DNA of 64,000 bases from Polytrichum commune. Lineage: Eukaryota > Streptophyta > Polytrichopsida > Polytrichales > Polytrichaceae. A program made the position numbers and the translations under genes. The notes below the pieces were generated by a model, which was given only the letters and a program-made list of their open reading frames with translations, ran no database searches and was not told the origin of the DNA. Positions 2,991-61,360 of the stretch are shown in pieces. Each line of letters opens with the position of its first letter. Within the stretch, counting starts at the first letter, position 1. The DNA is taken from positions 32,858,001-32,922,000 of the forward strand of contig OX485806.1 of assembly GCA_950295325.1 (NCBI GenBank). Reading direction: 5' to 3'.

Positions 2991-3604
2991 AGTTGTACTA
3001 CTGGCACTATGCACAAGAATCACTGTTCAGCCCAGTAAAATTCTCAAGAGCCATTGTTCATCTTAGCATCATTCCTTGAAATTGTTATTCATAGTAGAAT
3101 TATCAATGAAAATGCTGACATTATTCATAATATTCTTATTATTCGTATTGGCATTATTCATGTTGACAGTGTTCATTATTCATTCCAGTGTTAGTTCTTA
3201 ACACTATATTCGTTAATCGGAGACTTTTGAAAGTCTCAAAATAAAATATGCCCATAGTTTGGGATGCCAATATTGTGGGCATATGGAATGTTGGGAACAT
3301 CAAGAACATGACAATTTAAAAATTCGCACGTAAAGAATATTCCTAATACTAAAAATAGAAAATTGCAATTATAATGAAAACGTGAACTCCATGTGGAAAA
3401 TAACAAGCGAATATAAAAAACAAATGGTTTATGTCATTATAGAGTTTGGGGTGCGCATCCCATAAGTAAGGTTCTTATGGTTTTGGATGGCACATCCCAA
3501 ACGTATACCACAATGGAGTGTGACAAATCTACTAAGTCTATTAAAAACCAAGACTACTAAGTACTAATGTTTTTTCCCGCCGTTAACTTTCACCTATGTT
3601 ATGT
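2991..3604. other. AT-rich spacer
   Basis: This stretch runs from the tandem repeats to the stop of the transposase-like gene. It has several ATTCAT-rich words and would include the 3' untranslated region of the minus-strand gene. No gene was recognised. Confidence 0.4.
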
Positions 3605-6600
3605 TTACCCATCTCCATCTTCCGCTTCATATCCATTCTCGGCGTCATTTTCCGCAGCTGCAATACGTGCCAAGTTGTCTTTGGCAAAATGTATATGTTT
3701 TTGGGGGATGGTCATTGCTTCTGTGTTGGAACCTTTGCGCGGCTTCCAAGCACAAAGTATAGTATCCGTGTTTATCCAAACCGGTGTGTACGCTGAGTCC
3801 ACTGTCCACTTAAAATTCTTTTTGGTGTCCCAACCTAAATAAGTGCGGAGCACGTTGTGGTCTTTAGTGCTTGGACGACAATATTCCACCTCAATTTGAC
3901 GAAAGTTGGGGCTAGTTCGAACAAAATTGGGTGAAGACAATGCTTTTACCAACCAAATTGGCTTGGGATGCTCCTCATCCCCAGCTCGTACAAGGACCAA
4001 ATACCCTTCATGGCAATCAACACCTACACGAAACGACGGTGCCGGTCGATTGCGGGCAGGGCCAACGTAATGCTCGTCCATTGCGAACTCTTCACGAACG
4101 TCTCCATTGCTGAAAAACATAGTATCGGACTCGACAACCGTCAAACGACTTTGTGGCCAAAATCCTTGTGTCAAAGTCGTACGGGTGTCGCCACCAAGTG
4201 TCATCAAGGCTGAGCGAATGCGATCCCAATACGCGATCAACGGTTCATGGGTATCTCTAACACATCTTGTGATGTCCTCCTCGCACAACTCTTTCCAATA
4301 TTCAATGAATCCGGATATGCCTTTGATGATTTCCGGCCCATTCCTCATGGGTTCGGGTTTGCAAGGCTTTGGTTCCCCATCCGGGACCAAACATTTCCCA
4401 TCATTGTCTTGACGCCATACGAGTATACCATCATCCGGGCCCCAATTAGGAGATGTGCACAAAAGCTTGAATTGCATGGCCGGGAGACCATCGTCCCTCA
4501 TATAAAATCGGAATTGTTGTGCTTTGGTATGCCCCACCAAACGGTCCCCTCCCTTCAACATGTATGGCTTGATGAAGGCCTTGAAATTTGGTACTTCCTC
4601 AATCAAGTGCGGAATTACTGGCATATGGTCCAAATCCATATACGATTTCATAAGAAGAGGTATGGTTGGAAAATCTTCTTCATGCAACTTCATGCTCCAC
4701 CGTCCGAATGATGCATCAATGTCGTCGTGTGTATGTCCCACCATCAAGAAAGACACAAACACCTCCTTGAAGATTCCTTTCGCCACGAGCAATGACCAAA
4801 AACAAAATACGTATCGACATTTGTTGTCCTTCGCACAATTATCAAGTTGAACGTGGAGAGTTGGAGGCAATGGTTTTGCACAAATGGGCTCTCCGGGTGG
4901 TTCTGGCAATGACGACATACAAACCTCCTTCCCCAAAAGCACTGCCTCATAAAGGGATGTGGTTCCACAACCATCAAAAAGTGCACGGGAAGAATGTACC
5001 GGTGGCTTCTCAAGATCGCGCAACAGTTTTACAAATGAACCCACCGTGTGGTTAGCATCCCCAGGGTAAAAATCCAAACCATAATGGGCATACTTTACGT
5101 CCCCATGGCCGTGGGCAATCATACCTGGAAAAAACAAACGATGCGTGACCAAAATAATCAAATAACCACTAAACGGATGTATGGAGTTGGACATTTGCCA
5201 AACACACCCAAGAAAATTGGATAGACTTTAAACACGTAGTTGTGATTTCATACAAACCTGTGACAGCTACGGGCAACTTGAAAAGACCATCCGTGGCCTT
5301 TATTTTGCGTGCATAACAAGGGCATGCGGTTTTGGCGTGGTCCATTTTATCATGGATGACTGTTAGAACCTCTGTGGGCCTCATTATGGATAGAGCACGA
5401 TTCTTATAGTAATCTTGACGGTGTGCCTCTTGATTGTTGACATGTTCAATATATTTTTTCTGGTGTCTGGAATGAGATTCAGTGCCTATGGGGTGGGCGT
5501 CTCGAAGACCTTTGTATTTTTCACACGTCGTACATCTAGCGAACTTGTCCCCGGGTCTTTTCAGAATGTATTCCGCAAACTGCTGGTTTTTAATCACACT
5601 CAACTTGGACAAAGAAATGGGCCCACATCCCGCTATGCGACCCACTTCATTGATGTCCGTTAAGATGTTCTTCCATTTTGTGCCCGTGGGCAACACCATT
5701 TGAACAACCTTCTCCCCTGACGACAATGTCCTCGTCTTGTGGGGCATTGCATCAGCCAATGGCACTATGATGGTGGATAGTGTCGCGGACGCTTGCAGTG
5801 TAGCCTCCCTAGGTTTCTTTGTGCCCGAGTTGCCATGAAATCGAGAGCGGCGACCCAACGATGAATATTTTCGAAACCTATAAAAGTCAGCCTTGGAGAC
5901 GGCGTGGATGGTATACCACGCTGTACAACACACATCAACATTCTCAAGTGTCACCACCTTATGCCCATGGGTATCAAGGTGCAAATTTCTGTGGACCTCG
6001 AGTTTCTTAGCCGACCTCATACGAAAATCCGCAAGCCACATCTCTTGACGCAGAGATCTAATTTTCTCCCGCGGGAAAAATTGGCAACATTTCCTCGCGC
6101 AACAATCCTTGCCGGACACTAGACGGATAGATTCGTCCCCCAAAAGCCGATCCCGTCGACGCTCCTTATCTCCGCGAGGCACACGGTTTGAATCATATCT
6201 ACGGAGGCCTTTGCGAGGACGTGTTGTGGCCAACAAAGCTAATTGTGTTTGCTTATGCCGCCGCTCATGATCCCACAAACTCACTTCCTCATGTAGAACT
6301 CGACGAAGCGGCCATCGACGCAAGGAAAATCTCCATGTCACCGGGAACTCTACCGGAAGCAAAGAGTTCAAGATGCACACGCCAACATCATCGAGACCTA
6401 GGGCGTTGGCATCGACACAATCACGGGGATTGGAGTTTCTACATATACCATCTGCCACCGGGACACCAACCTCGTTGAGTAGAACGACATCAAGGCCAAC
6501 CCATTGCTCCCTCCCGAAACCGGCACACAACGGAATGTCATCGTGGTCATCTCCGGAATGCAGAGATTGTTCGTGGACTTCCAAAGATTCATGGGAGGAT

Positions 6601-6734
6601 GTATCCACAAACACCCCCCTCACGTTTGGCACACCATTACTATCTGCCGACGGGGAAGACAGTTCACATTCAGCATCGGATGACGATGCATACGTCGACA
6701 ACTCCAATGAACTATCACCCACATGCAACGCCAT
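3605..6734 (-). CDS. DUF7869-type transposase-like protein, two exons
   Basis: This encodes a protein resembling the widespread uncharacterised transposon-associated family with a C-terminal DUF7869 domain, thought to carry an RNase H-like (DDE-type) fold. Exon 1 is 6734 down to 5258 and exon 2 is 5124 down to 3605. The 133-bp intron (5125-5257) has a donor reading ACAG/GTTTG and an acceptor TTCCAG/GTATG, and the frame is kept across it. The start at 6734 was chosen because residues before it in the open frame do not look like family sequence. In the first exon I see the family's cysteine-rich parts (CCARKCCQFF, and CTTCEKYKG with following histidines). In the second I see the conserved QLDNCAKDNK and VGHTHDDIDASFGRW motifs. 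The only break seen is the spliced intron, so the gene may be functional. No terminal repeats were found. Family assignment is from memory of these motifs. Confidence 0.8.
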
Positions 6735-7056
6735 ACAGCCTAGACCAACCACCAGGACATGATCAACCCAACCACCACCGCAATGCATACAAGAGAGGAT
6801 AGAATATATGTGGAGATAAATGGCCCAAAATTGACAAACAAATTTTGGTGCACCATTGGAGAACCTCACGCACAAAGACGAACGCGCGTCCCAAAAAAAC
6901 GTTTTAAGCATACGTCTAGGTTGTTCACTAATGTAAACAATACATGGACAAAGAGGAGAACACTCGTTAGTCGTCCAAGAGGGCCCTGCTGTTCGGACCA
7001 GCGCCTGTCCACATACAACCGACGACGAAATCAGAAATCCGAGAACGCCACATGCA

Positions 7057-8131
7057 TTTACGAACGCGCGTTCGTGACCTCAGTAACTTCTCCATGTACA
7101 TCCGGCGGCCTTTGAGATCCCTCAAATGAGAGCACCCTGAGGAATATCGGTTTTGTAGGTCAAAGTACCATGTTGACTTAGGAACCTGCGCGATATACTA
7201 TCACAAGAGAACACTTGTCCATACGCACAAAATTAGCAAATCTGCAGATGATGCCTGAATCAACTCCAACAATATTTTGAACACTGAGCACCTCCATATT
7301 GTGAATTTGATTATGTTGACTTTTGCGTACCTACCCATTTACGAACGGACGTTCGTAAATGGGTGCGACCCCGTGTTCACATCCTTCACGGACGAGCGAT
7401 GAGCATATTTTTCTTGCTATTCTGTGTTCGTAAATTACTGCCATACTGATGTGCATGAATGAAGATGTGTTGCTGGATGCGTAGACAATAATGACATGTA
7501 TTTACGAACGAACGTTCGTAAATTCCCGACCATCAGGTAACAATAGATACGGGTCAAATAAGTATGTATGATCCTCGAAGGCATATTTACGAACGCACGT
7601 TCGTAAATGACTGTCATGGATTAAGTGCATGTGACTAACCATATGAGTACCTCAATCCAGAACATGCTCTCATGTGGTATTTACGAACGCACGTTCGTAA
7701 ATTACCGACCAACAGGTACCAATAGACAAGGGTCAAATATGTATGTATGAAACTCGAAGGCATATTTACGAACGCACGTTCGTAAATAAATGCCATGGAT
7801 GATGTGCATGTGACTATCCATGAGTAGCTCAATCCAAAACATGATCTCCTGTGGGATTTACGAACGCACGTTCGTAAATTACCGACCATCAGGTACCAAT
7901 AGATAAGGGTCAAATATGTCTGCATGGTCCTCGAAGGCATATTTACGAACGCACGTTCGTAAATAACTGAGATGGATTACGTGCATGTGACTATCCATAT
8001 GAGTAGCCCAATCCAGAACATGCTCTCATGTGGAATTTACGAACGCGCGTTCGTAAATCCTTGCCATGTCCAGGTCCGAATCGTTTGTCTAAACCTGAAG
8101 CTCTTCATCTTTACGAACGTGCGTTCGTAAA
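7057..8131. repeat. Palindrome cluster 1 (ten copies)
   Basis: Copies of the 22-bp palindrome (arm TTTACGAACG, two free bases, arm CGTTCGTAAA) begin at 7057, 7338, 7501, 7586, 7680, 7765, 7857, 7942, 8036 and 8110. Nearly all have perfect arms. The right arm of the first is degenerate. The copy at 7338 is extended to a 30-bp palindrome by CCCA/TGGG flanks. Confidence 0.95.
7501..8057. repeat. About three tandem units of 177-179 bp, each with two palindromes
   Basis: Palindromes begin at 7501, 7586, 7680, 7765, 7857, 7942 and 8036. Every second one is 177-179 bp apart, and the intervening sequences also repeat (for example 'AATAGATAAGGGTCAAATATG' in part, and 'AACATGCTCTCATGTGG'). The unit is therefore a two-palindrome satellite, amplified locally. 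Confidence 0.9.
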
Positions 8132-8655
8132 GTTCCGGTATTTACGGCGGTATATGCGGTAGGTACAGCCTGTACTGTACCTGGGTGGTGTAGGGTTGGC
8201 GCACACGAAATGGCTTGAGCGCGTTCGGTGAGGTCTGTAGAGCGCACACTTGCATGTGCCGCTGAAAAGAGCTTTGTTGTGGGGGGAAGAGCTTTAAGTA
8301 CTTCACCCCGCTGGTTCAAAATCCCTTGGATGCTCTTTAAAAAGCAGATTCCCGCCGCCTTCTTTGACCTAACAATCTCCCATTCCATCCATGCGGAATT
8401 ATATAAATAGCATTGTCATGTATGGAACATGCCTTGCATGCACGCCAACATATTGAAAATATATAAATCGGTTGCACACCTTAGTTGTGACCAAGGTCTC
8501 ATCGAAATATATGTATATACATATATATATATATATACACATAATGTCTAAATATGGAGATGGTTAACATTGAATATTTAATGATTTGCGACTAAGGTAT
8601 GAAGTCCAAGTTAATTGACAATTGATGCCTAATAAAGTTATGAATGTCGAAGTCA

Positions 8656-8703
<48 letters not shown>

Positions 8704-10289
8704 CAATGAGGTCAGAGTGGCTAAGAAACATGTTGCGGACGCCCCTAAAATTATAGGTATCATATGTTTCACATCAAAAAATGACCGTAATATGGTCACC
8801 AAGTGCATGAATACAACTAAAAAATCGGGTTAATCCATAATGGCTTGCACTAGGGTAGATTGAGGACACTATGAACTAATTATACCTAATAATATATGTA
8901 AGTTAGGTCTTCTTTCAAATGGTATCTAGGTGTGAAAATAAGGAATTAAAATGGCATGAGTAGGAAGGATTAATCAATTTGTAATGCTGCATAGTATGAT
9001 AGCGTAATGATCATTGAGACTTGAAACCATACTAGCTACCGTAACGTTGAATCATAGTTACAATTATTATGTGTTTGACGTCCTATTGGAAATTGAATTT
9101 TCGTCCACTTGTTGTAAGGGTACGGATACACATTGGTTAAATGTTTATTAGATCATTGGTGATATTTATAGTGGAATGCATTGTTCAATTGTTAGTTTAA
9201 GTTGACACATGATTAAATGAGTTGAGGTCCTATTGGAAATAGACTTTTAGGGTTTGGGGAAATGCACTATTAATTTGGAATGGTGCATACAATAGTATGT
9301 ACTTACAATTAATATATGTTTTGCATCCTATGAGAAGGATGTGCATCATCATAGCTTAAAGTGTTGATATAAATTGAAGTCTTAAGACATGCATGTTATT
9401 ATAATAAGATCGTGGATTGTGTGATGAAATTTCACTCAGAACTATTAAGGTGAAAGTGGGAATATTTGAAATTTCACTTATCACTTAAACCAAAGTTTTA
9501 TCTCAAATCTATTAATTTGGAATGTGAAATTGACAATTGCCATCATTATCAATTATTATAGTTGTTATGAACGGAATTAAGCATTCTCCATCCAACCAAC
9601 ATTGGTAGACCAATTTGACCTGCCCTCAGAAAACAACATGGCCACATATAAGAAAGGTTGGTAAGATAAAAAGATGCAGGGATGTAGGGTTTAGGGTTTG
9701 CGGTTAGGGTTTAGGGTAAGGGTTTGGGGGTAGGGTTTAGGGGTTTAGGGTTTGTGAAAGTTGTGTATGTGGTATTTGGGTTTAGGTTTTAGATTGTTAC
9801 TAGGATACATTACACACACAAACAATATTGACTCCTCAAAAACCCTTGTAATTGCATTAACTTTATTCATCGCAAGCTCGTAGTTGATGCTAGCAAAATA
9901 GTTGACCACTCCAGAAATGCATTAGTTCAAGCTAACACCTAATATGAGAACTTGAATTGACATCCTATCGTATAGCAACTCTGCGCAATCTCATATTATT
10001 ATGAATTCTTTTTTGCATGTAATATTTATTTGAGGAACCATCGAATTAATTGAAAGATATCTAGCTCTTACATAAACTATATTTTAAAACACCATATATA
10101 TATCTTTGGGGGTGGATTCTACATTGACAACCTAGGGAGTGACATGCATTGTTTATTACGAATTAACTGAGCATATTTTCCTAAAATATGTTTACAAGGA
10201 ATCCAAATGTAGAGGTACTAAGGAAATAAAACGAGTAAAATTCATGTATTTGAACTAAGCTTGTCAAGTTAATGCCTTAAACGCGTCCA
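8132..10289. other. AT-rich spacer with dinucleotide runs
   Basis: No gene was recognised. It holds TA-rich microsatellites near 8509-8540 and 8658-8704, the latter running into a CA run. The telomere-like stretch is listed separately. Confidence 0.5.
9685..9754 (+). repeat. Interstitial telomere-like (TTTAGGG)n, degenerate
   Basis: Seven or so irregular TAGGGTTT units appear, with variants such as GGGGTTTAGGG. TTTAGGG is the plant-type telomere repeat. The array is short and imperfect, as expected of an old interstitial patch. Confidence 0.8.
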
Positions 10290-10294
10290 TTACA

Positions 10295-10530
10295 TATAAA
10301 TATGTCAAAGCATGAGAATAACATGAAGGGTTCCAATATACAACCATCTCCCATCTCCCATCGCATCCCATCCCATCCCATCCCTTCCCATCACCTCCCA
10401 TACCATCCCATCCCATCTCTCTCCCAACCCTAGCCAGTGGAGTTGTGCCACGTGGCAGGTGCTGGGAAACCCTAGCGGCGCACCTACCTCCCCGCGCCCC
10501 TTCCTCTTCTCCTCATTTGTCATTTCGAGG
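10295..10530 (+). promoter_or_regulatory. Candidate promoter of the palindrome-associated gene
   Basis: A TATAAATA word lies at 10295-10302, a CCCAT-rich tract at 10347-10422, and a perfect G-box palindrome GCCACGTGGC at 10447-10456. The stretch lies upstream of the pyrimidine/purine-skewed leader-like sequence and about 1.6 kb from the first coding exon. G-boxes are common bZIP/bHLH sites in plants. Promoter function is inference. Confidence 0.35.
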
Positions 10531-10598
10531 AGAGGAGGAGCGGAGCGTTTAGAGAGCGAAGCTCTTGCTTTTTTTAGTCTTGAAGTTTTAAATTAGTT

Positions 10599-10981
10599 TT
10601 GTTGCAAGTTTTGAGAGATTTCAGATTGAGAGCTTGTGTGAAAGCTTTTGAGTTTGTGAAAGCTTTCATTGTGAAAGCTTTCATTGTGAAAGCTTTCATT
10701 GTGAAAGCTTGTGAGTTTGTGAAAGCTTTCAGTGTGAGAGTTTGTGAGTTTCAAAAGCTTGAGAGCTTGAGTAGGAAAGCTTCAGAGTTTCGGATTGAGA
10801 GCTTGAGGGTGATCTTTAGAAGCTTGAGAGTTTAAGGAAGCTTCAGAGTTGAAGCTTGAGAGTTTAAGGAAGCTTCAGAGTTGAAGCTTGAGAGTTTAAG
10901 GAAGCTTCAGAAGTGAAGCTTGAGAGTTTAGGGAAGCTTCAGAAGTGAAGCTTGAGAGTTTAGGGAAGCTTGAGAGTTTAG
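10599..10981 (+). repeat. AAGCTT-rich leader-like repeats: 15-bp and 32-bp tandem units
   Basis: A 15-bp unit GTGAAAGCTTTCATT repeats about 3.5 times at 10655-10712. A 32-bp unit starting GAAGCTTGAGAGTTTA repeats about five times with starts at 10819, 10851, 10883, 10915 and 10947. The open frame through it encodes only monotonous repeats, and I do not call it a gene. Its position between promoter-like sequence and the first coding exon suggests a 5' untranslated leader. A likely 3' splice site TTTTGCAG/GC is at about 11381. Confidence 0.7.
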
Positions 10982-11496
10982 GGTTTGCTTAAGAGTTCAG
11001 AAGCTTGAGAGCTACAAGGTTGTGAGTTTTGTGTACATAGGAGTATACTAGGGTTTGTATATAAGCTGTGAAGGCTTGAGGTCTGCATTAGAGAGTTATC
11101 TGAGTGTGCATTTGAAAGGCAATTGAGTGTGCAGTTGTGAGGATTTCTGGGATTTTCAGAAAGAGAAGAAGCAGGGATTGCAGTGTGCAGCATTTCAATG
11201 TAATTTGTTATCCTTTCCAACTCCTCTCACATTCTGAAAATGTTGCTTCTTGAATTCAATTTCTTTTGTTACATGCAATGTGAACTATCACTCTTTTCTT
11301 CATGTTTCATTCTGCATCTCATTCTGCATCTCAATTGCTTTATGATTGAAGAATTGCATCATTCTGACCAAAATTTTGCAGGCACGGCTGCAAGCAGAGT
11401 AGCTAATAAGTGAGTTATATACATATACGTATATATACGTATTCGTATATACACGAATACATATATGTACGGACAGGGGATCCCAAAACCATCACA

Positions 11497-12079
11497 TATA
11501 CGAACGCTCGTTCGTAAATGGACATACACTGCATACCGAACCTCCATTTACGAACGTGCGTTCGTAAATACGCACTCCACGTTCTTTGAAATGATCTATA
11601 TTTACGAACGCACGTTCGTAAATATATTCAAAATATCACTCAGAAGGAACCTTAACTTAAATATGAACCTCTATGAATATCTAAAGAACAAATACAATTT
11701 TGCGAACACCAATAAGACAAATCACATGTACTTACGAAAGATAAATCAACCAAATATCCGAAAAGATAGACCAAATGGACATACTTACGAACGCACGTTC
11801 GTAAATGAATCCAAACCTATAAAACCTATATCTTTTACGAACGATCGTTCGTAAAAATAACCAAATATATTACAAACACATTCATGACGAGTAGTCTCTT
11901 TGATCTTCATATCTTTTACGAACGCTCGTTCGTAAACTCAATACTAAAAATTTATATGATCTTGCAACCCCTCATTTACGAGCGAACGTTCGTAAATATA
12001 ATTACATCAATTGCAAAGACGCATTAACACTGCGTAGTCTGTGGGATATGCATGTCACTTACGAACGTTCGTTCGTAAA
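11497..12079. repeat. Palindrome cluster 2, upstream of the ParB-like gene (eight copies)
   Basis: Copies begin at 11497, 11547, 11601, 11784, 11834, 11915, 11975 and 12058. The centre dinucleotide varies (CT, TG, CA, CA, AT, CT, AA, TT) while the arms are nearly constant. Copies at 11497 (TATACGAACG), 11784 and 12058 (CTTACGAACG) and 11975 (an inner AGCG) have one changed base or so. The last copy is about 30 bp before the splice acceptor/start codon at 12108. Unlike cluster 1, spacers here are not repeats of each other. Confidence 0.95.
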
Positions 12080-12107
12080 GTCACTAATTGTTTATATTCT
12101 GTTGCAG

Positions 12108-15100
12108 ATGGCAAGATCAAGCAGAAGCGCCATTGAGATGTTCGCGGTGAAGGTCGATGGCCTCCCAGAGTCGGTGTTAGACGATAACGGCAACGACAAC
12201 TATGTCCCCAAGGAAGACTTCATGGGGGAGTGGACGGCACTGCCAGAGAAGATCGGGGACGGCCTCTTCTGCATGCGCTTCACCTACGAGCTGGAGACAA
12301 GACCGGACCAGCCCGAACAGTGGGTTCAAATGAAGACGTGGGAGATAGAGTCCATAGAGGCCCAGGGGGAGTATGTAATTCTGGACATGAAGAACAAGAA
12401 GGATCATATCAACCTCTTGTTGCATTTTCAGAAAAATACCTTCTCCTACCAATACGCCACCAATAACGTAGCGGAAGATGCCAAGCACTTCGACCTGGAC
12501 GGCCTCTTCTCCAAATATGCGTTGAGCCCATACTGGACTGCAAGGAAATTGACCGCCCTTGCATTGAACATCTCCAAATACAACAGTGTGGTCACTGAGG
12601 CAAACAAGAAGAAGAAGAGCCCCAGGAAACCATCCACATCAGGGGCAGGAGGATCTAGAAGTGCACCCAAGCCTGTGCCTTCCGCTAGCAGGGCGACGGA
12701 GGGCCCCAGTAGACACTCCACGCCATCGAAGAGGACAAGGGAGGAGATGGAGAAATCGGGAGTAACGGAGACCGCAGAGGTGACCTCGCCTGTCGTAATG
12801 CCCACCCCCTTGAAAAAGGGTGAGAACCCTGACGCTGTGAAGGCCACGAGGATCCTTCGAGACTTCAACAACTACTCGAAGGATTGCTGGCCCATGGGAC
12901 GCCACTTCACATTCAACGTGGACTGCTTCAAGTGCGAGATGTCCCCCAACAAATGGGTGGTTCGCTCTCGCGAAAGCGGTGGTGTGAAGTGGCAGATAAA
13001 TAATCTAATGAACAACGTCAAGTGGGACAGGCAGACCGTCTGCGTCATGCCGAAGGGGCTGACATCCCGTCCGACGAAGAAGGACTGGCCACGGATCCAG
13101 AATGGAGAGTTCTGGATCATAGACGGCCAACACAGCTTGGAGGCGTCCCAAATAATTCTCAAGGACGACAACTTCCAGCATGAGCTGAAGGAGGACTTGC
13201 GCTACTGGAAGGCGTTCTTGGTGTGGTCGGACGATTGGGACAAGCTGCGGAAGATATCCACCTTCCTCAACTCCGGCAACAAAATCAAGGCCTTCGAGGC
13301 GTCGTGGGCAGCCAACATAGTGGCTGCAAGGGACGTCTGGGTCGCCCACGGGTGCCCCCCTAAAGAAAGGGAGAACGCGAAGACGCCGTCTCCACAATGG
13401 AAGGTGAGTTTACGAACGAACGTTCGTAAATATCTTTGACATTCAAATTTTCAAGTTCTTTGACATTCAAACTTACGAACGTGCGTTCGTATTTTGTGCG
13501 TTACTGATGTTTTTCTTGCTGCAGGCATTCTGCGACGCGATGGTGGACAAGTTCTCCTCCATCGACATGAAGTCTACAACAACCAAGTCTGTCCTGGAGC
13601 TCAAGGGTGAGCTCCGCCTCATCTGTTGCAACAGGGACACTTGGGAGTTGTGGACACAATTTTTTGATGCGCACAGCTCGGGCGATCTGGTCAACCCCGA
13701 CACCGAGGAGAAGTACAGCGCGGAGAAGACCGGGGAGGCCCCTCCACTACTGAGGGAGTTCTTCAGGTCCCTTCAAGGGTTAACAGAGTCCGAGTTGCAG
13801 AGGTGCGCGGTGCATCTTCTTGGGAACACTGTGGGAAGAACCATCCCATACCCGAAGATATTTTTGAAGAGGCCAAGACACAAGCCCGGCACGTATTCCA
13901 TCAAGGAATGGTGCGAACACCGCAAGCTGAAGACTGCTGCAATGAGGGAGTTGAGCGCCCTAATACCAGAGTACGCACTCATCCTAGCCGACGGGGACAT
14001 TAATTGGGCCAGCTGGAAGATGTTCAAGGTCGACTACAACATCTCCGGACCCTCAATGCGTTGTCTTGTCAAGGAGCACGCCTCCATTTTGAAGCAGAAG
14101 GGGAACAAGAGGACAAAGAAAACCGAGACAGATCCCCAGGAGGTGGAGCAATACAGAAGCTTTTTGACGCGGAAGAGGTTGGCCACATTCGAAGGAGTGG
14201 CCAGATTTTGTCTGTTGACAAAAGGAGTGGAGAGGGTGACATTTTCCAAGTGGGACCGGACCATGAGCAGGGCCGAGGTGAGGGAGGATCGACGGGGGTG
14301 CCCATTTGCCCTGATCGATTTCAGGGGGATCCCCGGTGCGTCGAGGCAGGGGGGGAAGGACATACCTTTCTACGACCCCTTCATGGCCAAGTTCAAGGAG
14401 CACAAGTCTCCGGACATGAGGGAGCCTCACGTTTGGCTGTGGATAGTCGAGCAGGAGAAGCTCTCTGCTGTAGTCGACCTGTACGAGAAGTCGATCAAAT
14501 TTGAGTACAGCATCTTCCACAGCACTTACGTGCCCGCCAAGACGGAAGGGATCGTGGCCATCAACGAGGCCAGGGGGAACAAACAGGTGGGGGCAGTCAG
14601 CCTCGTCTTCTTGACGTACAACGCGCTGCGGAATGGGCGAGCCCCTGTCAAGGCGAACACTACGTTCAAGAAGATCTACAGCATCCCCCATCCCCCTCCC
14701 AAGGATCTGCTGCAGGAGACCTTGTACACTGTCTTCCCGGCGATGGAACTCAGGTTGGAGTTCTACGTCTCCGTTTTGCAGAGCGTGGCAATAAGCGGAG
14801 AGACCGTGTACAACGTTTGTGGCGGCAGCAAGTTCATGTACGCTGCGATGGTAAGCTCTCCAACTAATATTTACGAACGCTCGTTCGTAAAGTTCACCTC
14901 AACTTGTCTTGGGTTTGATGACATTGTTTCTCGTCGTTGATGTTTACGAACGCACGTTCGTATTTTCTAACGTATTTGCTTGAATCTCAGATGCTGGGGC
15001 TGGTCGTCAACAGCTTCATTGAAGCCATCGACGAGGAGGACTTCCACGTGCACAGGGCGAAGGCCTCCACGATGGACCTGGAGGACATGTCCCTCCCGAG

Positions 15101-16439
15101 GACGGACATCAACATGCCCGTCGACGAAGGCATGCCCGCCATGGAGACGGACGACGACGAGCCCGCGCCCTCCTACAACGTCGAGGCGATCCTCCGATCC
15201 TTGGACGTCACTCCTCTCCGCATTTTGGCGCCGTCGGGAAATCCATCCGACGTGCAAGGGACTCCGGGTGGATACACGGGGTCGTCGGCGGGGACAACCC
15301 AAGATGTCCTCCCCGCGAGAACGTCTGGAGCGGAGGCATTCGGCACTCCCGGGGGATGCTCGACATCCGTGTCGCCCAGGCCGATCGTGGTTCCCAAGAT
15401 GGAGAACCTCGACCTTCTGGACCAACGGTCCCGACCGACGTTGGACCAGTACCGCAACACGAGGCGGAGGATGAAGAAGACCCCCTACATGGAGCTGCCT
15501 CCGGGGGCAATCATCGAGGTCTCCGATGAGGACGAGGGCGACATGGAGATCATGGTCGAGCTGGGGGTAGACTTTGACAAAAACAAGAGGGTCAAAGAGG
15601 AGGCGTTGTCCGTCGCCGAGCTTAACGCCAAGCTCGAGCAAAAGATGAAGGAGGACATGGCGAAGGCGGCAGAGGAGAATGCCAAGAAAATGTTCGCAAT
15701 TCAGGAGGAGCTGAGGCAGTCGAACGAGAAGACGGACGCCATCCTCGCCATGCTCCAGCGTATGCAGAGCTTCTCGGCGCCCCCCCAGCCGGCCTACCCC
15801 TTCACTGGAGGATACCCCTCCCAATCCCCTCCACCGGGCATGTTCACCGGAGGGCCTTCCCGCCAGCAGGCGCCCCACCCCACGCCTGTTGGCACTCCTC
15901 CGCCACCAGAGGTTCCCTCGACCACCTCCCACGATGCTGTGGCGGCGGCCATCCAGGAGGACGAGGATTTACGAACGCGCGTTCGTGAATCTTCAGGTCC
16001 TCCAGTCCTCACCCCTCCCCCTTCAAGGGTAGGACTGCCCTCATACACCGATGCATTGTCTTTCACCGTCGTCCCCAGGGTAGTAGACAGACATGGCGAT
16101 GACTCTGCGCGACACACTGACATGGTCATTGTGGAGGACACGCAGGGGAGCCCCAATGACGCACCAGGGGTGCATGGGATGGACGTGGAAGAAACCCATG
16201 CGGCGTGGATGGAGGATGTCAGGATGGACGCGCTCGACCTGGGCGCCGAAGAAGAAGACGCGCTGCGCATCCAGGCGACACAGGCCTCTCAACCGGAGCG
16301 TGAGGCAGAGGCCATGGAGACAGAGGCGGCTGCAGCTGTGGAGGTTACGAACGTGCGTTCGTTAATCGTTGAGGAGGGACCTGCTGCTCGGTCCAGCGCC
16401 GCTACCCCTCCCCCCGATGACGAGGTAACTCTCCTCTGA
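12108..16439 (+). CDS. ParB-like / degenerate methyltransferase-like protein, palindrome-associated
   Basis: Exons are 12108-13403, 13525-14850 and 14991-16424. After 16424 the frame stops at 16439 if unspliced. Splicing to 16515 gives a stop at 16587-16589, and splicing to 17043 would fuse the HAD exon. All junctions are phase 0, with good donors (AAG/GTGAGT, ATG/GTAAGC) and acceptors (CTGCAG, CTCAG). The ATG at 12108 follows a GTTGCAG acceptor. Residues about 330-350 (NGEFWIIDGQHSLEAS) match the ParB/sulfiredoxin/DGQHR type of motif. Residues about 690-870 resemble a beta-class DNA methyltransferase, but the DPPY position reads IDFRG (about 697) and the FxGxG position reads NVCGGSK (about 862), so catalysis is doubtful. 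Residues about 1070-1135 form a charged coiled coil within a Pro/Ser-rich disordered region. The exons are GC-rich, unlike all flanks. Domain calls are my pattern recognition, untested by search. Confidence 0.65.
13409..13493. repeat. Palindrome pair inside intron 1
   Basis: Copies at 13409-13430 (perfect, five bases after the GT donor start) and 13472-13493 (left arm CTTACGAACG, right arm ending CGTATT). Together they occupy about a third of the 121-bp intron 13404-13524. Confidence 0.95.
14870..14964. repeat. Palindrome pair inside intron 2
   Basis: Copies at 14870-14891 (perfect arms) and 14943-14964 (right arm ending CGTATT). The 140-bp intron is 14851-14990. As in intron 1, the perfect copy is near the donor and the copy with the CGTATTTT end is near the acceptor. 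Confidence 0.95.
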
Positions 16440-16473
16440 GAATACCATTTTTTAACGAACGCGCGTTCGTAAC
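15968..16473. repeat. Palindromes in coding exon 3 and the following intron
   Basis: Copies at 15968-15989 and 16344-16365 lie within the open frame, translated as LRTRVRE and TNVRSL, and have slightly degenerate outer bases. A third copy at 16452-16473 (arm TTAACGAACG) lies just after the putative donor GAG/GTAACT at 16425. Its counterpart in the decayed copy is at 7057. Confidence 0.9.
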
Positions 16474-16754
16474 CTCTCTAACATCGCGATGTTTTTCTCT
16501 TCATCGACATCCAGTGGCCTTGCGAGAGCCCTCTTCAGCGGTCCCCCTTAGGGCCGAACAGTTTTGTAGGACACGGCATCATTTTGCCTTAGGAAAATGT
16601 GATAGACTATCACGTGAGAAATGTAAATATTCAACGGATTAATATATGAGCCTATGTTATCTGCATCGCGTTGCTTCAAATTCTCTGCCCTCGACCCCTT
16701 CTCGTATGTTGTATATGTTGATGAGATTATGTTGATTCTTGCATACCCACCTCA

Positions 16755-16910
16755 TTCGCGAACGCTCGTTCGTGAAAGGTTGCGACCCACTGTCCACCTC
16801 ATTCGCGAACGACCGCTCGTAAATGTACGTGTAGCCGCGCTCACGAACGAGCGCTCGTAAATGATGCGCACCGCCCCCGCAGCCTTCATTCACGAACGCT
16901 CGTTCGCAAG
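16755..16910. repeat. Degenerate palindrome cluster 3 (four copies)
   Basis: Copies at 16755, 16802, 16840 and 16889 keep the core CGAACG/CGTTCG or CGCTCG but have mutated outer bases (TTCGCGAACG, CTCACGAACG). They lie between exon 3 and the HAD exon, in the same relative place as the start of cluster 1 in the decayed copy. Confidence 0.9.
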
Positions 16911-17042
16911 TGTGCCCTTGAGCACATTTTCCTTGCACTCTCCTCACTTCCTCGTCTTTCCCCATAATGCACCGTCTTCATTTTCTACGCAAAGTTTCAT
17001 TATTGGATCATAGAATTAAACTAGTCGAGTTGTTCATCACAG

Positions 17043-17810
17043 GACCCCTCGGAGATTGGTCGCAACCCCTCGACCAGTGGACCTCCCACCCGGAACAAAC
17101 CTTTCATCGTTTTTGACCTCAATGGGGTGTTGTGTCACACCCAACACATCCCAAGGGTCCCCACGCGTCCCTTCCGTCACCCCGACGAAAGGGACTACGA
17201 CGGCGAGCTCGACACCCTCATTAACCGCAAGGCTGTCCGCGCCCGTCCCGGCTTGCGTGACTTCCTTCGCGAGGTGGTCGAGTTCGCTCACGTCATTGTG
17301 TGGAGCTCCATGGTCATGGAGAACACCGAGCCCATCGTGCACTTCTTGTTCCGCGATCTCCCGAGCCCTTGCCTCGTCCTCGGCCAAGAGGACTGCGACG
17401 AGCTGCTCGACGAGAAAGGTCAACCGGTGCCCAAGTTTGGCGGTCGGGGCGGAGGACAACAGTTCCTCAAGGTCCTCTGCTCGAGACTCTGGCGAGGCGT
17501 CCCCCGTCTGCAAGGGATGCCGCACGGGTGGTGGCCGACTCCAGAGAACACCGTCCTCATCGACGACAGCCCCACCAAGAGTGTCTTGAACCCCCCGGGC
17601 AACGTCATCTTCCCGGACACTTGGACCGGCGATAGGCAAGACACATTTTTGGTCGATAGGCTAGCCCCCTACCTTAGAAGGCTCGTGCTCCACGCCGGTA
17701 GCATCCCATTTTTTGTTAGGTCCAACCCCTTCGGCAATGCGGCGCTAAGCCCCCGCGATAATGTATTCAAGAGCATCATGAGGCTCGCCAAACTCAATAA
17801 ATTGATTTGA
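17043..17810 (+). CDS. NIF/FCP1-type HAD phosphatase domain (exon or separate gene)
   Basis: The open frame starts after an acceptor (TCACAG/GAC at 17042) in phase 0 and ends with TGA at 17808-17810. It shows the HAD series in order. FIVFDLNGVLCHT (residue about 25 of the exon) has DLNG in place of the usual DxDxT, a variant I recall in plant NLI-interacting-factor-like proteins. Next come VIVWSSM (about 86, motif II), a QQFLKVL lysine (about 143) and VLIDDSPTKS (about 174, acidic motif IV). Members act on phosphoserine, for example in RNA polymerase II tails, but the substrate here is unknown. No start codon precedes motif I within the open exon (the alternative GTG at 17127 would cut motif I). 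The likeliest reading is therefore that it is a downstream exon of the ParB-like gene, whose exon 3 ends in the matching phase. Confidence 0.65.
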   Translation, partial: DPSEIGRNPSTSGPPTRNKPFIVFDLNGVLCHTQHIPRVPTRPFRHPDERDYDGELDTLINRKAVRARPGLRDFLREVVEFAHVIVWSSMVMENTEPIVHFLFRDLPSPCLVLGQEDCDELLDEKGQPVPKFGGRGGGQQFLKVLCSRLWRGVPRLQGMPHGWWPTPENTVLIDDSPTKSVLNPPGNVIFPDTWTGDRQDTFLVDRLAPYLRRLVLHAGSIPFFVRSNPFGNAALSPRDNVFKSIMRLAKLNKLI

Positions 17811-17921
17811 AATGCCTCCATGTCTTTGCTTGTATCATGTGGTTCACATTTACTAATGCTTGCTTCGTTTTTGGATGTCTTTTGTTGTTGTGATTGTTGT
17901 TGTTGTTGTTCTTGCCCATAG

Positions 17922-18910
17922 TCTGCCCCCATATGCGACGCCCCTGTGGTCGACGGCCCTTCCCGTCCCCTCTCGCCCCCTGCCTCCCCTTCCCGCGACG
18001 TCACGGGCTTCCAAATGCCATCCCTCTACCAGTTCTCGGCGGTCGACGCGGCCTCGGCCGTGGATTACTCCCGCGACGTCGGCATCGACGACGGCGTCGT
18101 CAACAGCCCGCCCCCACCACTTGTCGCCCGCGCCTACGCCCCGTCGCCCTCCCCCCTCTCCAAGGAGAAACGGACGCTCGTTCGTTTGGGACACCTCTCG
18201 CCCTCGAGGGACGACGCCGTCGCTCGTCGCGGGCCGAGCCGGCGTCTCCGCATGGAAGGCCCCCGTTGCCACACCTCCCCCGCCGACTCCGTTCCTCCCC
18301 CCGCAACGTCCTCCGCGATCGTGGGCCCTCCACGCCTCGACTCCCCCCCGCCATCCAACATAATTGCAATAGTTCCATCGGCTCCGGATGCTCCCGTCGA
18401 CGCCCCCCTCGTTCCCACCGTTCCCCGCATGGACGTCCCCAAAGCCAAGGTGCCCTCCTCAACCCTGAACCCCTTTCTCGCTTTTGCTTTCCTTGTCTTC
18501 CGTTTGCGTGCCGTTCTCTTTACGAGCACCCATCCCAAACCGCCCTCATTATTTTCCCCACTCCATTCCTATTCTTATCTTCCTATGACGTTGTTTCGCA
18601 GGTGGTTACCCGCTCGCTTGGTGCCCGGCCCTCCTCCACGTCCTCCTTGGATAGGCACGCCCTCAAGGCCGCATCTTCCGAGTCCGATCGTTGTCTGGCC
18701 CTCCGGAGAAGCGCAAGACGTTCCCTTTCGCAAACACCCTCGCATTCTACTTATAATACCACCTCTTACAATTCGGGAGCGCGTCCTGAAACATGCAAGA
18801 ACGACACATATTCCTGTCCAGGCAACACACAAGGATACAGTCGTGGGCCTGAGATTTTTAGAGCCATGGAGGCCGCCAAAAAAAAAGGCTTAGCCGCCAA
18901 AAAAAAATAA
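17922..18910 (+). CDS. Disordered Pro/Ser-rich C-terminal exons of the palindrome-associated unit
   Basis: Two GC-rich coding-like exons are proposed, 17922-18449 and 18602-18910. The acceptor at 17921 follows a long T-rich tract (TTGTTGTTGTTCTTGCCCATAG, quoted in part). The donor is GCCAAG/GTGCCC and the next acceptor is TTTCGCAG/GTGG. Both exons are phase 0, and the reading closes at TAA 18908-18910 after a Lys/Ala-rich tail. The product is low-complexity with no domain recognised. The link to the HAD exon is uncertain because that exon ends in TGA. A phase-0 donor AAT/GTATTC at 17761 could bypass it. An overlapping long frame (17894-18910) in exon 1 looks like a composition artefact. Confidence 0.45.
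18168..18187. repeat. Last, degenerate palindrome copy
   Basis: AAACGGACGCTCGTTCGTTT retains the palindromic core with changed outer bases. It lies in the coding-like exon 17922-18449. It is the most downstream copy seen. Confidence 0.6.
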
Positions 18911-19432
18911 TGGGTCGGACTAGTGTGACGTCTAGAAGCGTACTAGTGGGACGGACTCCCTAAATGGGCTTAGGTGTAGAACATATTTAAGTGCTTACTT
19001 TCTATGCTATTCCAAGTTACTCAAGACATTGATGGTATTTCCATTATAATTGTATTTCAATCCCAATTAATTCATTCAACTTCCATTCATTCTTCGCACC
19101 TTCCCTTCCATTCATAACGAGTTGTGATTTCATACGCAACTATTTTCATGTATGCCTCACATTTTTGTTCACTTCCATGCCTTTATGTATAATAATAGTA
19201 GCATACCATTATACATATGGAATTTTTAGTCGTCATTACTGGTCCAATTTTGAAAGGTGCATCCTTATATAGTCTCATAATCAACAAAAAGTCTCCAAAT
19301 ACCGAATATAGTGTTTCTTCCTAATTTTTTAAGTTTCTTCCCATTAAGGTAAGATAGTGGAGGCCCATGCTAGATGATATATATAGAATGGAACACAACC
19401 ATGCACCTAAATAATGGGGAGTTAGAAGTTTT
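18911..19432. other. AT-rich spacer after the palindrome-associated unit
   Basis: Just after the stop there is a short inverted-looking segment (ACTAGTGTGACG and ACTAGTGGGACG as a direct near-repeat, 18917-18953). Beyond that the composition switches to AT-rich, and no gene was recognised. Confidence 0.4.
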
Positions 19433-19643: not shown

Positions 19644-19957
19644 TACACTAAATATGATATTTAGTGTTTGATTATAATTAGTGTTGTTACCACCCTATCC
19701 TGCACAACACTAATTTTCAATTCTTTGATAATTAGTGTTAGACATAAATGCGCCGCCACCTTCCCTACCGCCACCTCCCTTCTCCTTTTATCATTGTTAA
19801 TTTTTTTTCATATCCTTACTAACACTAAATTCATGCATGTAACTTCCACATATTACCATAGTTGATTATTAGTATTTGGGTTTACATTGAATGTTACTTA
19901 CTTTCATAGGGTTAGTGATATTTAGTGTATCGAACACTAAATATCCTATTTAGTGTA
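19644..19957. mobile_element. TACACTAAAT-family small element, copy D
   Basis: Left end TACACTAAATATGATATTTA and right end TAAATATCCTATTTAGTGTA are inverted repeats. Each end is itself near-palindromic. The interior is non-coding and only weakly like copies A and B. Confidence 0.75.
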
Positions 19958-20362
19958 CTAGAAAAAGAGGGTCAAGGGGACACCGTAATGACACCGAGAT
20001 GACACCGTTCTAACCAATCTAACAAATATTAGAGTTGAAGTGGGGTAGCCTTGGCCATGTCAAACTCATGTCATCTTGGACACAGTCTATTGCTAGCGTG
20101 GGAATACGTTTACCCTTGAATCATGGTGCATTCATCTAGCTAGGAGGACCACAAGGTTCATAAGTGTTAGTGCACATTCCTTGGAGCCATTCTCTAGGCC
20201 ACCGCTTTTCCATTTATTGTGGACAAACCTATTTCTACCAACGAGTATTCTTCAAAACTCAAAGTTACCTTTGGCGGTATCTTGCATGGAGTTGAAAAAA
20301 ATTGACCGCTCGTCAGGTTACACAATTGTGGGCTTATACATGTCTTCCTCGGGTAAAAACAT

Positions 20363-20589
20363 TACACTAAATATGATGTTTGTTGACACTTGTTATTTGG
20401 AATCATTATGCAATGCTATATCTTTCCATTGTTGATGTAACTCTTCACCAAGTAAAGTTGTTATTGTTTCATAATGTCCAAACAACCAATTTGACATTTG
20501 TTGGTAAAATTTGGGACTTACGGTAAATATATATAGCATTGCATGGATCATACAAATAGTAAATGTTACTAAATATCATATTTAGTGTA
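20363..20589. mobile_element. TACACTAAAT-family small element, copy E
   Basis: Left end TACACTAAATATGATG and right end CATATTTAGTGTA are inverted repeats 227 bp apart overall. Non-coding. Confidence 0.6.
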
Positions 20590-28148: not shown

Positions 28149-28951
28149 TGTAATGTAACTAGAATTATTAAGGAATATTCTAACTACATGTGCCAGTGTG
28201 TAAGCAGAAAAAGATGAGAGCTAGACAACTCTCGGTTGAGGATGAATGGAAAGGAGTAAGACAACTCCAGATTGACAACATGTGCACTGGAGTTAGACAG
28301 CTCCGCATTTAGTGCATTGGAACTAGACCATTCCAAGTGAGAACAAGTGCACATGAGTTAGACAACTCTCGATGAGGTGCACAGGAGTTAGACCACTCCA
28401 TGGATAAAGCTAGTTGGAATTAGACAGTTCCAACTAGAAGATTGACTAGTTGGAATTAGACAATTCCAACTAAGAGAAAGGTTGGATGAACCAAGTTGGA
28501 ATTAGACAGTTCCAATTGGAATGAAGGATGAATGTATTTAGTTGGAATTAGACAGTTCCAACTAGAAAGAAGAATGGATGAATCCAATTGGAATTAGACA
28601 GTTCCAATTGGAAGAATGGAATTGAGATAAGAGATGAAAGAAGGTTCTAGAAGAACCATAGATAGAAGATTCATAGTAGAACTATGAGATAGAGCTATGA
28701 ATAGAATACTTTTACTATATGTAAATATAGAAAGTAAAAGTAGTGCTTCGGCATAAAAGGAAGCTCGGGGGAGGAGAGAGCATCTTTTTTGTCTCTCTCC
28801 TATGGTCGGGTGGTAGAGCTTCGTTGACCAAACTTTATTTGGTTGCGGTTTGTACTTAGAGGAAGAAATAAAATTGGTGTTGGTTTCAATTCTTTACTTT
28901 GAGATTTTGTGGTCAAGACACAAATTGCCAACCGGTGAGAGGTTCGTAATA
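28149..28951 (+). repeat. 5' LTR
   Basis: Begins TGTAATGTAACTAG and ends GGTTCGTAATA. It carries the hairpin array (about 28216-28700) followed by a segment with AAAGTAAAAG and CATAAAAGG words that may hold the promoter. The same sequence recurs as the 3' LTR. Confidence 0.95.
28216..28611 (+). repeat. Array of eleven TAGACA-loop hairpins in the LTR
   Basis: Inverted repeats around a TTAGACA-like loop occur at 28216, 28253, 28289, 28317, 28355, 28384, 28410, 28448, 28496, 28539 and 28584. Arms differ between units (GAGAG/CTCTC, GGAG/CTCC, TTGGAA/TTCCAA, CTAGTTGGAA/TTCCAACTAG, CCAATTGGAA/TTCCAATTGG), but pairing is kept. Two further short hairpins follow at about 28643 and 28672. The same array is in the 3' LTR. 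Confidence 0.9.
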
Positions 28952-33450: not shown

Positions 33451-34253
33451 TGTAATGTAACTAGAATTATTAAGGAATATTCTAACTACATGTGCCAGTG
33501 TGTAAGCAGAAAAAGATGAGAGCTAGACAACTCTCGGTTGAGGATGAATGGAAAGGAGTAAGACAACTCCAGATTGACAACATGTGCACTGGAGTTAGAC
33601 AGCTCCGCATTTAGTGCATTGGAACTAGACCATTCCAAGTGAGAACAAGTGCACATGAGTTAGACAACTCTCGATGAGGTGCACAGGAGTTAGACCACTC
33701 CATGGATAAAGCTAGTTGGAATTAGACAGTTCCAACTAGAAGATTGACTAGTTGGAATTAGACAATTCCAACTAAGAGAAAGGTTGGATGAACCAAGTTG
33801 GAATTAGACAGTTCCAATTGGAATGAAGGATGAATGTATTTAGTTGGAATTAGACAGTTCCAACTAGAAAGAAGAATGGATGAATCCAATTGGAATTAGA
33901 CAGTTCCAATTGGAAGAATTGAATTGAGATAAGAGATGAAAGAAGGTTCTAGAAGAACCATAGATAGAAGATTCATAGTAGAACTATGAGATAGAGCTAT
34001 GAATAGAATACTTTTACTATATGTAAATATAGAAAGTAAAAGTAGTGCTTCGGCATAAAAGGAAGCTCGGGGGAGGAGAGAGCATCTTTTTTGTCTCTCT
34101 CCTATGGTCGGGTGGTAGAGCTTCGTTGACCAAACTTTATTTGGTTGCGGTTTGTACTTAGAGGAAGAAATAAAATTGGTGTTGGTTTCAATTCTTTACT
34201 TTGAGATTTTGTGGTCAAGACACAAATTGCCAACCGGTGAGAGGTTCGTAATA
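33451..34253 (+). repeat. 3' LTR
   Basis: Same length as the 5' LTR with one base difference seen by eye (GAAGAATG versus GAAGAATT context). Followed by the ACAAT target duplication. Confidence 0.95.
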
Positions 34254-60987: not shown

Positions 60988-61360
60988 TACACTAAATATG
61001 ATATTTAGTGTCATATGGTATTTAATGTCATTATGGTAACTTTTCGGGTGATACTTCTTATGAATAAGTGACCAAGTATTGTCATGGATGGATGAGTTCA
61101 TCCATTGGCCAAAACCCTACCTTCTCTTGTTAGCAACTTGTGATGACGTATTGTCATGGAGGATTGGAATATGGATGAAAAATCACTTGGTAAGTGACAA
61201 TAATTGCAACACTGTAAATCTATAATCCCCAAAAACAATTACGAGGAATGACAAATAATGTTAGTTTAACATTTAGTGTCGGTGACATGACACCCCGATT
61301 TACAATTAGAATTTAACAAGACGATTAGAATTGGTGACACTAAATATCATATTTAGTGTA
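60988..61360. mobile_element. TACACTAAAT-family small element, copy B (best preserved)
   Basis: Left end TACACTAAATATGATATTTA and right end TAAATATCATATTTAGTGTA are perfect inverted repeats over 20 bp. Interior matches copy A at 1611-2059 but is about 75 bp shorter. Non-coding. Confidence 0.9.

What the first reader, a model, noticed from the sequence alone, without database searches (positions are those of the whole stretch)
12108..18910. ParB-like protein encoded amid a dense set of 22-bp palindromes: possible self-recognising element
The first exon carries a ParB/DGQHR-type motif (residues about 330-350). About 30 copies of one palindrome fill its leader, introns, part of its exons and 3' flank, between 7057 and 18187, and none were seen in the remaining 52 kb. 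In bacteria and phages ParB binds clustered palindromic parS sites, and ParB-like domains are fused to DNA methyltransferases. A plant-genome unit with the same pairing (binding-type protein plus palindrome clusters) is not something I know described. Binding of these palindromes by this protein is inference.
Basis: partly seen in the sequence, partly recalled or inferred. Interest (0 to 1): 0.93.

Follow-up and report, generated by a model that had tools for sequence, protein, structure and literature searches.

The report
Jumping gene with palindrome address tags
A large plant jumping gene carries about thirty copies of one palindromic DNA tag plus a gene for a protein built like a bacterial palindrome-binding (ParB) protein joined to a DNA-methylase fold, and related jumping genes in the same genome carry differently spelled tags beside their own version of the gene, which suggests that each family recognises its own DNA.

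Summary
The window has 29 sites of TTTACGAACGNNCGTTCGTAAA (15 exact), all at 7057-16910. The plus-strand gene (four exons, 12108-17810) encodes a ParB/sulfiredoxin-fold domain, a DNA amino-methyltransferase fold lacking the DPPY motif, and an NIF phosphatase domain. The genome has 2909 exact sites (reversed control 0); of the first 86, which are all that were listed, 85 lie in copies of the element. Of 119 database homologues in three clades, many read on into introns; the palindrome these stretches can encode differs by clade (arms TACGAACG, TACGGACG, TTGGGTCG; shuffles max 1). The predicted second and third palindromes then turned up in this genome beside genes of the matching clade (one locus each inspected). 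Best reading: a transposon-encoded ParB-methylase-like protein binds its own family's palindromes, most likely to resist silencing, as VANC does in Arabidopsis. Binding and anti-silencing are inferred. ParB-methyltransferase accessory genes in algal transposons, including Ectocarpus Sola1, are in print; my searches listed no description of palindrome arrays with clade-specific codes.

The parts
3196..3199 (.). 4-bp target-site duplication TCTT, left
   Evidence: 4-bp duplications in 4 of 4 copies with both ends held (TCTT, CATA, ATCT, TAAG)
3200..3228 (+). left terminal inverted repeat, AACACTATATTCG...
   Evidence: 29-nt inverted repeat with 19287-19315, 90%; same ends in other copies
3605..5124 (-). 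transposase exon with DUF7869 (PF25273)
   Evidence: hmmscan E 2e-40
5125..5257 (-). transposase intron (inferred from splice-like ends and reading frame)
5258..6911 (-). transposase upstream exon (5' limit not determined)
   Evidence: ORF; 86-98% identical in four of the five C1 copies
7057..8131 (.). 10 palindromes between the two genes: 7057, 7338, 7501, 7586, 7680, 7765, 7857, 7942, 8036, 8110; six of the spacings are 85-94 bp, within a ~178-bp repeat
11497..12079 (.). 8 palindromes in the leader of the ParB-like gene: 11497, 11547, 11601, 11784, 11834, 11915, 11975, 12058
12108..13403 (+). exon 1 of the ParB-like gene: N-terminal all-beta domain (weak PH/PTB-like match), then the ParB/Srx-fold domain (about 12885-13310, DGQHS at 13122-13136)
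   Evidence: fold from homologue P0002
13409..13430 (.). palindrome, start of intron 1 (exact)
13472..13493 (.). palindrome, intron 1
13525..14850 (+). exon 2: helical region, then DNA amino-methyltransferase fold (about 14188-14850); motif IV replaced by DFRGIPG (14317-14337)
14870..14891 (.). palindrome, intron 2 (exact)
14943..14964 (.). palindrome, intron 2
14991..16424 (+). exon 3: presumably the end of the methyltransferase-like fold, then a low-complexity Pro/Ser/acidic region
   Evidence: reading of the sequence
15968..15989 (.). palindrome inside coding exon 3
   Evidence: kept in a diverged copy
16344..16365 (.). palindrome inside coding exon 3
   Evidence: kept in a diverged copy
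16452..16473 (.). palindrome, intron 3
16755..16910 (.). 4 palindromes, intron 3: 16755, 16802, 16840, 16889
17043..17810 (+). exon 4: NIF/FCP1-type HAD phosphatase domain (PF03031); joined to exon 3 by splicing inference only
   Evidence: hmmscan E 2.9e-16; phase-0 GT..AG join
19287..19315 (-). right terminal inverted repeat
19316..19319 (.). 4-bp target-site duplication TCTT, right

Best explanation
This is a 16-kb cut-and-paste DNA transposon, probably of the Sola superfamily. It carries a transposase on one strand and, on the other, an accessory gene whose product joins a ParB/Srx-fold domain, a DNA amino-methyltransferase fold without the usual catalytic motif, and (by inferred splicing) an NIF-type phosphatase domain. 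About 30 copies of a 22-bp palindrome (10-bp arms, free 2-bp centre) sit mostly in its noncoding parts. SHOWN by sequence: the transposon anatomy, the folds by prediction, the palindromes' place in element copies where examined, constraint on the palindromes, and the clade-by-clade co-divergence of palindrome spelling and protein. INFERRED: the accessory protein binds the palindromes as a dimer, like ParB on parS; each family reads mainly its own spelling; and the bound protein keeps its own family open and mobile by excluding or removing host silencing, as VANC proteins do for VANDALs. Spreading from the palindromes as a clamp, as ParB and VirB do, is possible but unproven, and the DGQH motif lacks a following arginine.
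For: TIRs and 4-bp TSDs in 4 of 4 copies with both ends held. DUF7869 transposase 2e-40. 2909 exact sites in the genome, reversed control 0; 85 of the first 86 (all that were listed; my count) lie in five copies of the element. Exon 1: 97 scored matches among 1090 candidates, 87-100% identity; of the ten best, which include the window itself and are near-identical, 10 of 10 have palindromes in leader and introns and none in exon 1. Constraint: 19 palindromes 90.5% identical between window and one diverged copy, against 68.0% for other noncoding and 61.6% for third codon positions. Folds: ParB/Srx and DNA amino-methyltransferase. Co-divergence without a preset motif: best encodable arm A 19/29, B 11/43, C 15/37 proteins with overhangs; maximum 1 in 10 shuffles per clade. 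Frames that tell the codes apart (code list drawn up after looking): clade A 16/29 A only, clade B 15/43 B1 and 4/43 B2, clade C 23/37 C-type, no crossing, 0 of 119 protein bodies. Predictions met in the own genome: 1147 exact B sites, control 0; one B cluster holds a clade-B gene at 68.7% identity to P0002; five C sites, three exact, precede a clade-C gene at 76% identity to P0007 over 228 residues. A 9.5-kb derivative with its genes nearly gone keeps 46 palindromes at <=4 mismatches. Precedents: VANC binds motif arrays in noncoding parts of its own VANDAL family and the motifs differ between families (PMC5735166, Results read); VirB, a ParB relative, is an antisilencer (PMC10770331, abstract).
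Against: No binding, methylation or expression data. CpG gave no clear trace of hypomethylation: a first look favoured it (o/e 1.14 in leader and introns against 0.50 in the palindrome-free middle), but in three copies CpG near palindromes (0.83-0.92) was only a little above CpG far from them (0.72-0.79) and TpG/CpA was higher near them too. DGQH is followed by S in 35 of 36 proteins with the motif and N in one, never R. No Foldseek match reached E 0.001 (best 2e-3 and 7.6e-3). The clade-B copy is not purely B: of 16 sites, one (6188) is an A-type site with 1 mismatch and two (9102, 9148) are 2 mismatches from both. Clades B and C were each checked at one locus only. More than half of clade-B overhangs show no code (24 of 43, RTxVR aside). 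Co-divergence could also arise if another protein of the element, such as the transposase, reads the sites.
Confidence: 0.58

Rival explanations
1. Self-marking: the protein is an active DNA methyltransferase that modifies the palindromes or the element (N6-methyladenine or N4-methylcytosine), and the mark controls expression or silencing. The Ectocarpus authors suggest binding and epigenetic modification of the own transposon for related proteins.
Against: No DPPY/NPPY/SPPY-type motif in any of 119 proteins; DFR..P is found in 70, and D265, F266, R267 are at 90% or more in A5. Many of the 119 are exon-1 or partial sequences, so 119 is not the number that cover the site.
Confidence: 0.14
2. 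The palindromes are autoregulatory sites: the protein binds them to tune transcription of the two genes, with no effect on silencing.
For: Dense sites in the leader and between the two divergent genes.
Against: Sites also lie in introns 1-3 and exon 3, and a derivative with its genes nearly gone keeps 46 of them, which autoregulation of the own genes does not need.
Confidence: 0.15
3. The palindromes are transposase-binding sites (internal or subterminal repeats) needed for transposition.
For: A gene-poor derivative keeps them, as cis sites for a protein supplied in trans would be.
Against: They are not near the ends: in the window 3.9 kb from the left TIR and 2.4 kb from the right (about 0.9 kb in the short derivative); they sit in introns of the ParB-like gene in all three clades.
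Confidence: 0.1
4. RNA hairpins acting in splicing, or a small selfish palindrome that inserts itself.
For: Symmetric changes between clades would also keep RNA hairpins; many sites lie in introns.
Against: The arm sequence itself is kept (2909 exact sites), where a hairpin needs only pairing; sites also lie between the genes; 85 of the 86 listed sites are inside element copies, not scattered.
Confidence: 0.03

Closest known systems
Ectocarpus Sola1-1_Ec32 ParB-methyltransferase accessory gene (PMC12477816, passages read)
   Same: Large transposon (21.5 kb); accessory gene on the strand opposite the transposase; ParB-like plus N4C/N6A methyltransferase domain; the authors suggest recognition of the own transposon.
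   Different: The word 'palindrom' does not occur in that text; there the methyltransferase is predicted to make 4mC or 6mA, here DPPY is missing; here an NIF phosphatase exon follows. Their protein was not compared by sequence.
VANC / VANDAL21 and VANDAL6 of Arabidopsis (PMC5735166, Results read; PMC10398659, abstract)
   Same: Transposon-encoded accessory protein; motif arrays, often tandem, in noncoding parts (introns, intergenic) of the own family; motifs differ between related families.
   Different: VANC motifs are short (8-9 bases) and arrayed in one orientation, not 22-bp palindromes; VANC has DUF1985/DUF287, not a ParB or methyltransferase fold; VANDALs are Mutator-like (recalled).
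ParB/Noc/KorB/VirB on parS, NBS or virS (PMC12704722 passages; PMC10770331 abstract)
   Same: ParB/Srx fold; clustered sites beside the gene; VirB is an antisilencer.
   Different: Not prokaryotic; DGQHS lacks the following arginine; ParA was not sought; nucleotide binding untested.
Phage ParB-N6/N4-methyltransferase fusions (PMC12704722 passages)
   Same: Same two kinds of fold in one protein.
   Different: Eukaryotic transposon, altered catalytic motif, extra N-terminal and NIF parts.
Sola DNA transposons (PMC10741241 passage)
   Same: 4-bp TSD, some over 15 kb, present in the moss Physcomitrella.
   Different: No Sola transposase sequence was at hand to compare.

Membership tests
TIR DNA transposon | Terminal inverted repeats with target-site duplication of fixed length | tested here: met
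   AACACTATATTCG ends; 4-bp TSD in 4 of 4 copies with both ends held
Sola superfamily | 4-bp TSD | tested here: met
   definition from PMC10741241 passage
Sola superfamily | Sola-type DDD transposase | not tested
   Only DUF7869 was identified; no Sola reference sequence was compared
ParB-CTPase / Srx fold | Structural match to ParB/Srx | tested here: met
ParB-CTPase | P-motif arginine for nucleotide binding | tested here: inconclusive
   DGQHS in 35 of 36 and DGQHN in 1; which residue is homologous was not established residue by residue
ParB-parS partition system | Clustered palindromic sites near the gene | tested here: met
ParB-parS partition system | ParA partner | not tested
   No ParA search was made
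DNA amino-methyltransferase (beta class) | Fold | tested here: met
DNA amino-methyltransferase (beta class) | Catalytic DPPY/NPPY/SPPY motif | tested here: not met
   0 of 119 proteins have it; DFR..P in 70
VANC anti-silencing proteins | DUF1985 or DUF287 domain | tested here: not met
   Pfam scan of the four exons listed neither at E<=1
VANC-like function | Sequence-specific binding to own noncoding motif arrays and loss of methylation | not testable with these tools
   Only motif arrays, constraint and co-divergence are shown

The most novel reading that the evidence does not exclude
Plant transposons use a captured prokaryotic-type ParB-methylase protein as a self-versus-other address system: the protein loads at family-specific palindromes spread through the element, coats the element, and shields it from host silencing. 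Sister families in one nucleus stay separate by respelling both palindrome arms in step with the protein, giving a natural set of orthogonal protein-DNA codes.
Probability: 0.38. Interest if true: 0.93.

Novelty: new variant of a known kind. Interest (0 to 1): 0.82.

Why it matters
How transposons escape silencing without disturbing the whole genome is open. The well-studied case cited here is VANC in Arabidopsis. This would be an independent solution built from ParB and DNA-methylase folds, with target sites readable from sequence alone and at least three spelling codes in one genome. That makes specificity switching directly testable by binding assays and could yield a set of mutually exclusive palindrome-binding proteins.

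Tried and rejected
Rejected: 'parS-like cluster around a host gene' (it is a transposon); 'palindromes as subterminal repeats' (too far from the ends); 'chance' (controls). CpG depletion as a trace of hypomethylation: promising at first, not borne out by the near/far comparison. Pattern scans of public collections led nowhere: viral contigs 0; genome contigs two isolated hits in bacteria, taken as chance. PDB sequence searches with exon 1 and exon 4 found nothing. Literature: nine searches, listings only except for the six papers opened; none listed described a ParB-type transposon protein with palindrome arrays; bioRxiv and most subscription papers are not held. The genome-wide count of clade-C palindromes and the genome search with P0002 were asked for many times and never answered.

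Full report
OBSERVATION. The palindrome TTTACGAACGNNCGTTCGTAAA occurs 29 times in the window (<=5 mismatches, all <=3; 15 exact), from 7057 to 16910, and at no other place in the 64 kb at that threshold; 100 shuffled-arm palindromes gave at most one hit at <=3 mismatches. 27 of the 29 are outside the coding exons. A repeat of about 178 bp at 7500-8058 (three copies) carries two palindromes per period.

THE UNIT IS A TRANSPOSON. A 29-nt inverted repeat joins 3200-3228 with 19287-19315. The flanks carry TCTT on both sides. In four copies with both ends held the ends are AACACTATATTCG and the duplications TCTT, CATA, ATCT and TAAG; five further copies had one end missing, mutated or not held. Minus-strand exons encode a DUF7869 transposase, E 2e-40. 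4-bp duplications and sizes above 15 kb fit Sola elements (PMC10741241, passage); Sola membership of the transposase was not tested.

GENOME-WIDE. The own genome (408 Mb) has 2909 exact palindromes, control 0. Only the first 86 distinct sites were listed (my count; all on the first 2.6 Mb of C1): 85 fall in five stretches that proved to be copies of the element; one, C1:2485595, was not examined. Exon 1 has 97 scored matches from 1090 candidates at 87-100% identity, six at 100% counting the window's own. The ten best, window included, all have palindromes in leader and introns and none in exon 1. One copy (C1:639070-648560, 9.5 kb) has nearly lost both genes yet carries 46 palindromes at <=4 mismatches, many at regular spacings.

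CONSTRAINT. Between the window and a copy with 86% identical exon-1 protein, 19 palindromes are 90.5% identical with 9.8% gaps; other noncoding sequence is 68.0% with 21.4% gaps; codon positions 1, 2, 3 are 87.5, 91.8 and 61.6%.

CODES. Three protein searches gave 119 homologues from public collections, organisms not named, in three clades by best hit (A 31, B 48, C 40). Many reading frames run on into introns. Asking which palindrome arm (8 nt, free 2-nt centre) these stretches could encode, with no motif given, the best arm was TACGAACG in 19 of 29 clade-A proteins with overhangs, TACGGACG in 11 of 43 clade B and TTGGGTCG in 15 of 37 clade C; in ten shuffles per clade the maximum was 1. With a list of codes drawn up afterwards, the reading frames that tell codes apart show no crossing: clade A 16/29 A; clade B 15/43 B1 and 4/43 B2; clade C 23/37 C-type; 0 of 119 protein bodies. 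The inferred codes change both arms alike and keep CG-NN-CG at the centre.

PREDICTIONS MET. The B palindrome, inferred from proteins only, has 1147 exact sites in this genome, control 0. One of seven listed clusters was fetched: it holds a clade-B gene (68.7% identity to P0002) with 13 B sites at <=1 mismatch and no exact A site, upstream, in the leader, intron 1 and intron 2; three of its 16 sites are not clearly B (one is A-type with 1 mismatch, two are 2 mismatches from both). On C1:2473714-2474164 five C palindromes (three exact) stand in the leader just before a clade-C gene (76% identity to P0007 over 228 residues), whose match then breaks off for about 3 kb. The genome-wide C count did not complete.

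MECHANISM. Best supported: the accessory protein recognises its own family's palindromes. Most likely purpose: anti-silencing, by analogy with VANC, which binds motif arrays in introns and intergenic parts of its own VANDAL family and causes loss of methylation, with motifs that differ between families (PMC5735166, Results), and with VirB, a ParB-family antisilencer (PMC10770331, abstract). Against: no clear CpG trace and no arginine after DGQH in 36 of 36 proteins with the motif.

PRIOR ART. ParB-methyltransferase accessory proteins in algal transposons are in print: Ectocarpus Sola1-1_Ec32, with the suggestion that they bind and modify their own transposon (PMC12477816, passages). A survey of the ParB fold covers eukaryotes; its main text has no word beginning 'transpos' (PMC12704722, passages). 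New here, as far as the nine searches reach: the DNA side (arrays of constrained palindromes), their clade-specific codes co-diverging with the protein, three codes in one genome, the altered catalytic motif and the NIF exon. Hence 'new variant of a known kind'.

On re-reading the calls I mended: the VIA-align rows (25 of 26, not all), the capped listings, the ten loci (the best ten, window included), the sites in the clade-B copy that are not clearly B, the first CpG look, and 'metagenome' (the sources do not say so).

Noticed in passing
28287-28612 and 33589-33914: Two near-identical stretches 5302 bp apart, probably LTRs, each carry 7 copies (<=5 mismatches) of a different imperfect palindrome, TTGGAATTAGACAGTTCCAA: possibly another element with its own array.
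   Followed up: no
1615-2055, 19645-20588, 60989-61359: Paired hairpins ACACTAAATATNATATTTAGTGT (up to 5 mismatches), probably palindromic ends of small MITE-like elements, two of them flanking the transposon.
   Followed up: no
7057-7400 and 16452-16800: A diverged (about 66%) direct duplication within the element that includes palindromes: upstream of the transposase and intron 3 of the ParB-like gene.
   Followed up: partly
L011 (C1:2258001-2268000): A second, more distant relative of the transposase (45-63% identity) next to a copy of the element.
   Followed up: no
L007-L008 (C1:639070-648560): 9.5-kb derivative, genes nearly gone, 46 palindromes (<=4 mismatches), many regularly spaced: a possible parasite of the parasite.
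   Followed up: partly
17946-18893: A 315-aa low-complexity open frame between exon 4 and the right end; a weak palindrome copy near 18170. Unknown whether it is a gene.
   Followed up: no
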